A stretch of DNA of 64,000 nucleotides from Tachypleus tridentatus (lineage: Eukaryota > Arthropoda > Merostomata > Xiphosura > Limulidae), in the NCBI RefSeq assembly GCF_004210375.1, contig NC_134829.1, forward strand, positions 23,638,034-23,702,033, written 5' to 3'. Both the position numbers and the translations under genes were made by a program. The notes under the pieces are model-generated. The model was not told the origin of the DNA. It saw only the letters and a program-made list of their open reading frames with translations, and did no database searches. Of this stretch, positions 40,501-43,500 are shown one piece after another; the first letter of the stretch is position 1; each line of letters starts with the position of its first letter.

Positions 40501-43500
40501 GGGCGCTTTCACATGGAATGTTAAAGCATGCATTATACGACCTCGATAGAATTCATATCAAGATACTGGCCTAATCGTAGGAGAATGGAGCACTTTGAAC
40601 TACAACGTGTTGTTTTGTGACTTAGATTTTAAGAACAAGAGCCCCCTTTTTACATTAAAATGCTGCCATGTCACTGACAAGCTGGTTATTGGTACAGACA
40701 GAAAGAAGATCTTGCTCGAGAAGTTGTGGGCGTCCCTTTTTACACCACCATCTGTGATAGTGATCTCTTCACATACCACCAGCTATGAGAGTCCAGCTGT
40801 CGAAGTGGTATTCACACTGTCAGAGGACGCATCTAGAAGAAGAAATTGTCCCTCTATAAATCAGCTGTGATCATCGTCCTTCCACATACAACCAGCTGTA
40901 ATTGTCCAGTTATCAAGGTGGTATCTACAGCGTAAGAGGATGTATTGAGACGTAGTGTTCGTACTTCCACACATAATTAGCTGTGATTGTCCATTTCTAG
41001 AAGTGGTTATTTCAGAGTAAAAGATGTATTGAAACGTAATGATCGTACCTCCACACATAACCAGCTGTCGTCAAACTCACGTTCTTACACTTTTTGTTTT
41101 GAAAATTGTGAACATCTTCATTGCTGGTAAAAAAAATTCCATTTTCATAAAACACAGGAGGTTGTGATGTTCACTGCTACAAGTGGCTTCTGTTTATCTG
41201 TTCTGCCACTGAGGCTTATGCTATGAGGAATACATTTGAAGGTATTGGGGCACACTTGAACCAAAATTATAGCAACAGTATCCGGATCTTGCAGAGCTAC
41301 TGTTTTTCAGTATGACTGGAGCTACATTTTCACCCTATTCATTGGTAAATAGTGTTGCAAGCGATGGCAATTTCTCGCCGAATTTAACTGTCCTCCCATC
41401 TTTTAGCTATAAGTCATTGTGATCGTTCAGGCCATTTCATATTTTCTATTTATTCCTTAGTAGGCTGTGAACACTGTTTTTATTTACTTGGTTATGCTTA
41501 AGATACAAAAGAGCTATGGTTACAAGCTATGTTCGTAAGGTACATTTTAGTTTATTAGAAAATATGTGTTTTTGTGTAATATTTAGTTAAATAAATTTGT
41601 TCAACAGTTTTAATCAGTTAATTTTAAGCGAATCAGTCAGTTTTTAATTGTTAAATATTGGATGTTGTAAGTAAATTAAGGTGGAGCCAGAGGTTTCTCT
41701 AAATATTATTAGGTTCCCGCTCATGTCATCACAATATAAGCTAGTTATTTGGTTTAAATATATTTTTTTAAAATAATTTATTTATAGGAGGATGCTTTAC
41801 AACCAGGTGGAGCTACATTACATAACACAATGACACCTCACGGTCCAGACAGTAATTGTTTTGAAAAAGCATCCAATGCACAGCTGGTACCAGAAAAAGT
41901 TGGAGAAGAAACAATGGTAATTTATTACATGAATACAATATTAATCTTAGAAATACTTCACGCTTGCCTCGCATAATGGGAAAAGTTAGAAAGTTTTGAA
42001 ATTTAAAAGTTCAAACTATCATTGAATATTATAGAAGATGAGTACATTATATTAAAAGTTTTCAGAGGCTCAAACAAACAGATCCAGTCCATTTCGCCAC
42101 ATCTTGTCATGCTCTGTCTGATCACCATGCATCCTTGATATTAACCCTTAAGTACAGTTTCCATTGCAAAAGAGTCCGTTATAAGGCTGTCACATCCAAA
42201 GTAAATCATTGCTCTCTGTAGACTTTTCATATTGCATTTTGTGTTGGAGGTCAACAGTTTCCTAGTACTCGTTTTAATAGTTTGGTTGCACAAAAATCTC
42301 TTGGCACCCTGTGCAGTGGCTTGTCCGGCATGTCTGTGTATGGAATAGCATGAATATTTATTCTTGGTGACGAGAAACTCACTTGAAATAAAAATGTACC
42401 TGAGAACGGCTGTTATGGGTATAAACACTTATTGATAAGGAGATAACAACCTGAAGATGACCTGGGAAGGTCGAAACGTTGTTCTCTTCTTATCAATAAG
42501 TGTTAATACCTATACCAGCCGTTCTGAGATATATGAATACTTATTGCTTTTCCATATATTTCAGACATGCGATTGTTGAACATACGCCTCGTGAAAACAA
42601 CTTTTATAGACATTAGGTGCGTATTTTCCAGATGGAGATCTTTCTTGAATATATTGCATACTATTGTCTAGGGCACTTTGGTGGTTTTTGTCACTGACCT
42701 TTTTTGATTGTAGATTCTCATTCATTACAAAGCGCCATACTTTGCTTACCACGCTTTGATACGACTTGTTGAAGTACTCTTTCTCGATGGTTCTGATGTC
42801 CCAATTTGATACACATTCATTTATTTTTAATGTAATTAAACATAATGGATGTCTTTATCTTAGAAGCTTTAAATCTCCAGTCTGAACACACTTGTATAAA
42901 AAGAGTGTGTGAATATTTTGTTTTTGAAAGGACTATTACTTACCCTTCCACAAACAATCAATTATCGTAACATTACGTTACCTACAAACTGTTAATAAAT
43001 GCCAAAATGCAGTCTTGACACACGCAATTCTATCACAAAGGTTGTTGTTATTACTTGATTTGTTGATTTACATTTTAAAATAATTTTAATATAACATTCT
43101 TTAGAAAATAGTGCTCATTATGCTGTTATAATTAATGTAGTTAGTTTCACAACTACTTTGAGTTAGTAAAATATCCATGTCCAGTAGCTTGCTCATTAAC
43201 CAAGCAAGGAGCATTTAGTCATTCTTTTTTAATATATAAAAAGTACTGTGTTAATGCAAGTAGTGTTTTATTTGGCTCAGACGACGCTTATACTTCACAA
43301 GTACTCTGTTCTATTTGACAAAGCGAACATGCTGATTGATGCAGGACATTTGTACTATTGACAAGAAACTACTTATTTGCTGCTTTTCATACTGAGATGC
43401 CACAGGTATGAACACAGTATTGTAATTGATGAATGACTGTAGGCGCTACAAAGATGTCTGTGAATGGTGGAAAGATTTTTCTCTTAAATATTTTTGTGCA

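What the first reader, a model, noticed from the sequence alone, without database searches (positions are those of the whole stretch)
42350..42545. Foldback retroelement family with a hammerhead-like loop
Four short elements (23.12, 25.40, 36.35 and 42.36 kb) share a 20-base head near gatgacgagaaacccacttg and consist of long inverted arms around a small loop. This copy's loop reads ctgaagatgacctgggaagg tcgaaacgttgtt. It contains the conserved hammerhead bases C-U-G-A-N-G-A, a GACC/GGUC helix and GAAAC, then GTT-GTT that can close a one-pair helix III. Hammerhead ribozymes are known in Penelope-like retroelement terminal repeats. Against it: there is one extra U between the CUGAAGA box and helix II, and helix I does not pair next to the core. 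AACAAC can instead pair with GTTGTT to make one long hairpin.
Basis: partly seen in the sequence, partly recalled or inferred. Interest (0 to 1): 0.75.

Follow-up and report, generated by a model that had tools for sequence, protein, structure and literature searches.

The report
Penelope retroelement hairpins carrying hammerhead core
These short hairpins are leftovers of a Penelope-type jumping gene that inserted a small piece of its own front end twice, back to back, with the gene's stripped-down hammerhead (self-cutting RNA) motif as the loop; both features are known in this class, but the copies also show where the enzyme starts copying.

Summary
The four foldbacks (A-D) are real; a fifth core copy (E, 39.57 kb) was missed. 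The host genome holds 1,920 exact cores (control 0). The parent is a Penelope-like element (PLE): in locus L232 a reverse-transcriptase piece and a GIY-YIG ORF are followed about 120 bp later by core and arm. The shared 'head' is the PLE 'tail' in reverse; the arms are opposed copies of the PLE 5' region, flanked by target duplications. The loop fits a minimal PLE hammerhead: CUGANGA, GACC/GGUC, GAAA, then CGUU, where ACGU could form helix III only in a dimer. In this register helix I (AAC/GUU) does pair next to the core. An extra U after A9 remains; one viroid hammerhead has an extra A there. In D itself AACAAC/GUUGUU out-competes the hammerhead fold. Rfam's hammerhead models do not score it; cleavage is untested. 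Copy ends cluster at two sites, 79 and 113 nt after the AUG, and 38 of 40 D-like foldbacks carry the tail on exactly one arm. Arm 5' ends do not pile up at the predicted cleavage site.

The parts
42350..42362 (+). Left target-site duplication of copy D (ATGAATATTTATT)
   Evidence: 12 of 13 identical to 42533-42545
42363..42392 (-). 'Head' = PLE 'tail' in reverse, present on this arm only
   Evidence: Shared with A, B and C; reverse complement continues the arm in direct tail-bearing copies
42393..42450 (-). Inverted arm of copy D (PLE 5' region, antisense)
   Evidence: Inverted repeat I7
42451..42480 (+). Minimal hammerhead-type core: CUGAAGA 42451-42457, extra U 42458, helix II 42459-42463/42468-42472, GAAA 42473-42476, C-G-U-U 42477-42480, predicted cleavage after 42480
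   Evidence: Sequence; descriptor hit; 968+952 exact core matches genome-wide, control 0
42481..42532 (+). Direct arm of copy D (helix I 3' strand, then PLE 5' region), no tail
42533..42545 (+). Right target-site duplication of copy D (ATGAATACTTATT)
23106..23284 (+). Copy A with its exact 14-bp duplication (23106-23119 and 23271-23284); core truncated to the helix II 3' strand + GAAACGTT
   Evidence: duplication by eye
25400..25588 (+). Copy B (second arm subfamily); core on the - strand, changed at C3 and G12; target duplication unclear
36336..36584 (-). Copy C with its duplication (36336-36348 and 36572-36584, 12 of 13 identical); nearly full core at 36438-36406 plus partial core copies
   Evidence: duplication by eye
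39570..39654 (+). Copy E: core and direct arm without a clear inverted arm

Best explanation
The foldbacks are minimal insertions of an endonuclease-containing Penelope-like retrotransposon. Shown here: each consists of two opposed copies of the element's 5' region (hammerhead-type core, ~55-nt arm, optional ~34-nt tail), in nearly every case one arm ending at a 'short' site and the other at a 'tail' site, most with a recognisable target duplication. Inferred: the PLE protein cuts both target strands, each free 3' end primes reverse transcription inside the element RNA (one at the tail site, one at the short site), both cDNAs run towards the RNA 5' end and stop in or just past the hammerhead, and the two cDNAs are joined. 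That gives a head-to-head inverted repeat with the hammerhead at the centre. The loop is therefore the PLE's minimal type I-order hammerhead: CUGANGA, one extra U, helix II GACC(U)/(A)GGUC, GAAA, and CGUU whose self-complementary ACGU could form helix III only between two RNAs, cleavage predicted after GAAACGUU. Individual copies look like neutral relics. The confidence is for the element's identity and layout; for two-strand priming it is about 0.65.
For: Genome copies: 79 matches to D (40 of 5,661 first-look candidates scored); core 968+952, control 0/0; arm 27-mer 767+832, control 0/0. Parent: L232 RVT_1 and GIY-YIG ORF, then core and arm on the same strand. Two arm subfamilies: right arms 34 of 60 (A/C) and 41 of 61 (B/C) identical, while left and right arms of one copy are of the same subfamily in 4 of 4 window foldbacks; core stretch of L235 against the C/D type 33 of 36 identical by eye, the differences at N7, the outermost helix II position and loop II. 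Tail on exactly one arm in 38 of 40 D-like foldbacks, in 4 of 4 window foldbacks and in 4 of 4 foldbacks with both arms exact in the arm sample (L259, L263, L264, L294). Arm 3' ends in that sample are bimodal: 28 short, 7 between, 38 tail of 73; behind the tail the bases are random (15 arms). These sites lie 79 and 113 nt after the AUG; the anole PLE starts 111-118 bp into its ORF and extends both strands in vitro (PMC11167929, main-text section read). Target duplications: score >=8 in 25 of 40, 0 of 40 with mismatched flanks. Fold: L235 and L164 form helices I and II next to the core.
Against: No Rfam hammerhead model scores the core in D or L235; the only hammerhead line, RAGATH-1 on L164, is chance level (14.2 bits, cut-off 56.3, E 6.3). 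An extra U follows A9; helix III cannot form in a monomer. In D and L121 AACAAC/GTTGTT wins (helix I probability 0), in C/D-type parent-like copies helix I is weak (0.10 in L237, 0.01 in L275), and in L235 the best fold also pairs four core bases with CGUU. Core positions are hardly better kept than arms among 57 copies (0.90 vs 0.87). Arm 5' ends do not gather at the predicted cut (3 of 50 within 2 nt). I did not show a full-length PLE of the C/D subfamily; the clear RT + endonuclease example is A/B type and broken, and of the four GIY-YIG loci found only this one adjoins the core. The 40-foldback sample was chosen by similarity to D, and the arm sample comes from one contig. 15 of 40 foldbacks gave no duplication above the control range.
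Confidence: 0.87

Rival explanations
1. Self-priming: one cDNA folds back on itself (AAC/GTT of helix I as primer) and copies its own arm, giving the inverted repeat from a single priming event.
For: Many junctions read AACAAC|CTGAAG, where helix I complementarity gives 3-nt microhomology; PMC3846280 (passage read) favours self-priming for inverted pLTR pairs with palindromic junctions.
Against: A self-copied second arm cannot be longer than the first, and copying to the end would duplicate the flank in inverse orientation. In foldbacks such as D the arm without the core carries the extra ~34-nt tail, and the flanks are direct repeats where recognisable.
Confidence: 0.25
2. The hammerhead resemblance is only a repeat-sequence or coding coincidence with no ribozyme descent or activity.
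For: Rfam does not score it; extra U; no helix III in a monomer; weak helix I in L237 and L275; copies decay evenly.
Against: All core letters, helix II and the NUH site are present, with the substitutions between subfamilies at free positions; descriptor 0 in 100 simulated windows; PLEs are reported to carry minimal hammerheads lacking helix III (PMC6155905), and the anole PLE hammerhead straddles the start codon as here, with protein-dependent cleavage (PMC11167929).
Confidence: 0.15
3. A MITE-like foldback DNA transposon with long terminal inverted repeats.
For: Short, non-coding, high copy, long inverted arms.
Against: The two ends differ (tail on one side only, 38 of 40), duplications are long and variable, copies without a second arm exist, and the same ends follow an RT + GIY-YIG element.
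Confidence: 0.02
4. Animal retrozymes: small tandem non-autonomous elements with type I hammerheads that spread as circular RNA.
For: Short elements with a type I-order hammerhead, low G+C and longer target duplications (PMC7229834, passages read); two fetched loci (L133, L149) hold two cores in the same direction about 0.8 kb apart.
Against: The direct pairs differ in arm type and are wider apart than the 170-400 nt of animal retrozymes; helix III is missing; the sequence is the 5' end of a coding PLE.
Confidence: 0.03

Closest known systems
Endonuclease-containing Penelope-like elements with inverted pLTRs and a one-sided tail (Adineta vaga Pen2a and kin; PMC3846280, passages read)
   Same: Head-to-head inverted copies of the pLTR, a ~31-bp tail at one of the inverted pLTRs only, short target duplication, start of the ORF inside the pLTR
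   Different: There a full or truncated ORF lies between or beside the pLTRs and duplications are 8-10 bp; here foldbacks hold only the 5' ~85-150 nt, with duplications of about 10-16 bp
Poseidon PLE of Anolis carolinensis, PAc (PMC11167929, main-text section read)
   Same: Hammerhead at the start codon (cut 26 bp after it there, 24 here), two RT start sites with the tail between them, the start 111-118 bp into the ORF there and 113 nt after the AUG here, protein extends both target strands
   Different: No difference between strands in RT start site was seen in vitro there; here one arm ends at each site. In this family the frame of that AUG is soon closed by a stop in copies C and E
Minimal PLE hammerheads without helix III (PMC6155905 section 8 read; Cervera & de la Pena 2014 and Lunse, Weinberg & Breaker 2017 seen only as reference entries; their content recalled)
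   Same: Core, helix I and II, no closed helix III, dimer cleavage expected
   Different: One extra U between A9 and G10.1 here; whether published PLE hammerheads have it could not be checked
Chrysanthemum chlorotic mottle viroid (+) hammerhead (PMC3705267, passages read)
   Same: Unpaired extra residue directly after A9
   Different: Extra A instead of U; hammerhead of a plant viroid

Membership tests
Penelope-like element | RT and GIY-YIG endonuclease in one element linked to these ends | tested here: met
   L232: RVT_1 43.4 bits and GIY-YIG 28.2 bits in two overlapping frames of one strand (a broken copy), core and arm about 120 bp downstream; one A/B-type locus of four GIY-YIG loci
Penelope-like element | pLTRs in inverted pairs, tail on one side | tested here: met
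   38 of 40 D-like foldbacks; L235 holds two opposed pLTR copies, tail on one
Penelope-like element | Target-site duplication | tested here: met
   25 of 40 with score >=8, 0 of 40 in the mismatched control
Penelope-like element | RT phylogeny within the PLE clade | not tested
   No tree was built; the L232 frames are broken and were not joined
Hammerhead ribozyme | CUGANGA and GAAA core letters | tested here: met
   D and L235; 85 of 89 C/D-type cores begin CTGAAGA, a set partly chosen by that motif
Hammerhead ribozyme | Helix II directly on A9 through G10.1-C11.1 | tested here: inconclusive
   G-C pair and helix present (p 0.99-1.00 in 5 of 6 copies folded, 0.32 in L275), but one extra U lies between A9 and G10.1
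Hammerhead ribozyme | Helix I next to the core | tested here: inconclusive
   L235 p 0.97-1.00 and L164 0.99-1.00; L237 0.10, L275 0.01; D and L121 0.00 because of register competition
Hammerhead ribozyme | Helix III | tested here: not met
   No closed helix III in the monomer; only self-complementary ACGU for a dimer (sequence)
Hammerhead ribozyme | Covariance-model score | tested here: not met
   No hammerhead family; 14.2 bits vs 56.3
Hammerhead ribozyme | Self-cleavage | not testable with these tools
   Needs bench work
Retrozyme | Tandem 170-400 bp repeats bounded by hammerheads, circular RNA | tested here: inconclusive
   No same-direction pair at that spacing among the 74 core matches, but L133 and L149 hold direct pairs about 0.8 kb apart; RNA not testable
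MITE / foldback DNA transposon | Equivalent terminal inverted repeats, transposase parent | tested here: not met
   Ends differ by the tail; parent has RT + GIY-YIG

The most novel reading that the evidence does not exclude
The many minimal insertions are a genome-scale record of PLE integration. One target strand primes at the tail site and the other at the short site in nearly every foldback event, and because reverse transcription starts only 79-113 nt after the AUG, an ordinary single-unit mRNA, whose 5' end would lie about 3-12 nt upstream of the hammerhead, can yield only these ~130-nt footprints; full-length copies need a tandem transcript. The hammerhead would then not make the insertion template, since arm ends do not gather at its cut site.
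Probability: 0.4. Interest if true: 0.62.

Novelty: new member of a known kind. Interest (0 to 1): 0.45.

Why it matters
PLE transposition and the role of its hammerhead are little understood. Abundant minimal copies in one animal genome place two reverse-transcription start sites to within a few bases, in agreement with the PLE studied in vitro, and suggest a one-site-per-strand rule that can be tested genome-wide. They also show how a ribozyme core can end up as the loop of many long hairpins (potential dsRNA); how many of the 1,920 exact cores are hairpins was not counted. If most insertions prove to start at the mRNA 5' end just before the hammerhead, that would help explain why PLEs occur as tandem units.

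Tried and rejected
Tried without success: Rfam at the gathering cut-off on the window (only a tRNA-like hit at 24135-24195) and permissively on D, L235 and L164 (long-hairpin microRNA models and chance lines). The motif as text in papers: none. 'Penelope' with 'hammerhead' and 'horseshoe crab' (host guessed from a recalled SINE, not established): none.

Rejected: that foldback junctions mark the hammerhead cut. In the D-chosen set many inner ends lie at -3 to 0, but that set is biased towards D. In the sample chosen by arm sequence only, 3 of 50 informative ends fall within 2 nt of the cut, while 27 of 50 lie at -45 to -29, just upstream of the core or at its first bases (the 31 in notebook entry 4 is a miscount). 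That sample: 77 rows, 3 duplicates dropped, 74 arms, 24 of them running beyond -46. 12 of the 27 showed no inverted arm in the short stretch fetched, so the cluster is not only a foldback effect; but alignment ends are blurred by chance matches and subfamily differences. Rejected: purifying selection on single copies. Rejected: MITE; retrozyme unlikely. In the fold test 4 of 10 copies asked for (L232, L246, L272, L290) lacked the exact motif and were not folded.

Full report
1. Observation. Copy D is as described. With its target duplication it spans exactly 42350-42545. A (23106-23284), B (about 25400-25588) and C (36336-36584, - strand) share the same layout, and a fifth copy E (core 39570-39602) lacks a clear second arm. 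The core, with up to 3 mismatches, has no match in 100 shuffles of the window.

2. Source. The window lies in contig C5 of a 2.17-Gb genome, which could be searched. The D query gave 79 matches (40 of 5,661 first-look candidates scored). The E query gave 52 matches (40 of 1,800 scored). The exact core pattern occurs 968+952 times and the arm 27-mer 767+832 times; the reversed-pattern controls gave 0. The GIY-YIG family search gave 4 matches (150 of 1,532 candidates scored). One of them, L131/L232, is followed by the core: RVT_1 piece, GIY-YIG ORF, about 120 bp, core, arm. Another (L129/L235) holds two opposed pLTR copies about 170 bp apart with the tail on one, but its endonuclease ORF is about 1.7 kb away and may not belong to the same element. 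L128 has a tail-like piece, L130 nothing that was looked for.

3. Anatomy. In sense orientation the PLE 5' region reads: pLTR - (G/C)UUAAC or GUGAAC - CUGANGA - U - GACC.. loop ..GGUC - GAAA - CGUU - GUU.. arm (~55 nt) - tail (~34 nt). Foldbacks are two such pieces head to head. Subfamilies A/B and C/D differ in the arms (right arms 34 of 60 for A/C, 41 of 61 for B/C), yet in the 4 window foldbacks both arms of one copy are of the same subfamily, so both came from one kind of RNA at insertion. D shares a 2-nt deletion relative to C in both arms.

4. Two start sites. In 40 D-like foldbacks the tail is on the left arm only in 22, the right only in 16, both in 1 and neither in 1 (L171 and L176 are near-duplicates). 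The D query favours copies with at least one tail but does not disfavour two. Independent of that choice, 4 of 4 window foldbacks and 4 of 4 foldbacks with both arms exact in the arm sample have one tail; foldbacks of that sample with only one exact arm were not scored for this. Arm 3' ends in the arm sample: 28 short (mode +55), 7 between, 38 tail (30 of them at the last base of the reference, +89) of 73. Behind ..CATCAAGA the next base is A in 14 of 15 arms and then the bases are random, so the end is real and not the end of my reference. Counted from the AUG in the core (24 nt before the predicted cut) the sites are about 79 and 113. The anole PLE starts 111-118 bp into its ORF, and its tail lies between two start sites (PMC11167929, main-text section read).

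5. Hammerhead. Reading GAAACGUU as G12-A15.1, C15.2, G16.2, U16.1, U17 makes helix III a self-complementary ACGU without a loop. The next bases GUU then pair with the AAC before CUGANGA. This is like PLE hammerheads described as lacking helix III (PMC6155905 section 8 read) and the PAc hammerhead, whose ORF begins at stem II (PMC11167929). The extra U after A9 sits where the CChMVd (+) hammerhead has an extra A (PMC3705267 passages read). Predictions (6 copies folded): helix II p 0.99-1.00 in D, L121, L164, L235 and L237, but 0.32 in L275. Helix I in the hammerhead register: about 1 in L235 and L164, 0.10 in L237, 0.01 in L275, 0 in D and L121; in L235 the best fold also pairs four core bases with CGUU. 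So some copies can take the two-helix form, others prefer another fold, and in D the foldback itself created the competing pairing. Rfam gives no support. Among 57 copies identity to consensus is 0.90 for core positions, 0.87 for the arm and 0.82 for loop II: even decay.

6. Is the cut used for insertion? Arm 5' ends in the arm-chosen sample: 27 of 50 informative ends lie at -45 to -29 (core start is -30), 3 of 50 within 2 nt of the cut. This speaks against cut RNA being the usual template. It agrees with the in vitro PAc result that hammerhead cleavage is not needed for insertion and that no reads begin or end at its cut (PMC11167929). The cluster could mark the mRNA 5' end; this is inference.

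7. Verdict. A new member of a known kind: PLE footprints with the PLE hammerhead. Papers with Penelope, inverted pLTR and tail were searched (listings seen) and two were read in part; the one-tail count and the 5' end cluster were not stated in the parts read, but several PLE and hammerhead papers were not held, so I make no claim that they are unpublished.

Noticed in passing
window 39114-39239 (+): Exon of homogentisate 1,2-dioxygenase (HgmA_C, 1.7e-22); copy E lies downstream of it, before a further exon-like stretch at about 39912 (by eye).
   Followed up: partly
window 33500-34134: Opposed copies of what looks like a tRNA-derived SINE (inverted repeats I1, I10, I14); further opposed copies at 4736-6656. 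Family recalled, not searched.
   Followed up: no
window 24135-24195 (-): tRNA-like Rfam hit just above cut-off (30.8 vs 29 bits); ARAGORN found no tRNA.
   Followed up: no
window 59459-59836 (-): 125-aa open frame that reads like the N-terminal part of a mariner-type transposase (by eye); Pfam gave only a sub-cut-off match, PF0610-like_N (19 vs 33 bits).
   Followed up: no
window 3233-3576: Another long foldback: 152-nt arms, 83% complementary, 40-nt loop; no match to this family.
   Followed up: no
G000 C1:15371206-15958307: 26 listed core copies with one identical sequence, often about 10 kb apart; no ORF of 150 aa in the 10 kb of L234. Possibly an amplified segment.
   Followed up: partly
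L133 (1502, 2276) and L149 (1504, 2308): Two cores in the same direction about 0.8 kb apart with different arm types: nested insertions or a partial tandem.
   Followed up: no
L235 6150-6560: Opposed pLTR copies with both cores intact, flanked by a perfect 15-bp duplication ATCATACAGCATTAC (by eye).
   Followed up: partly
Rfam MIR821 / MIR8562 / MIR8643 on L235, L164 and D: Long microRNA hairpin models give E down to 3e-24 on these foldbacks although below their cut-offs: long near-perfect hairpins inflate such models.
   Followed up: no
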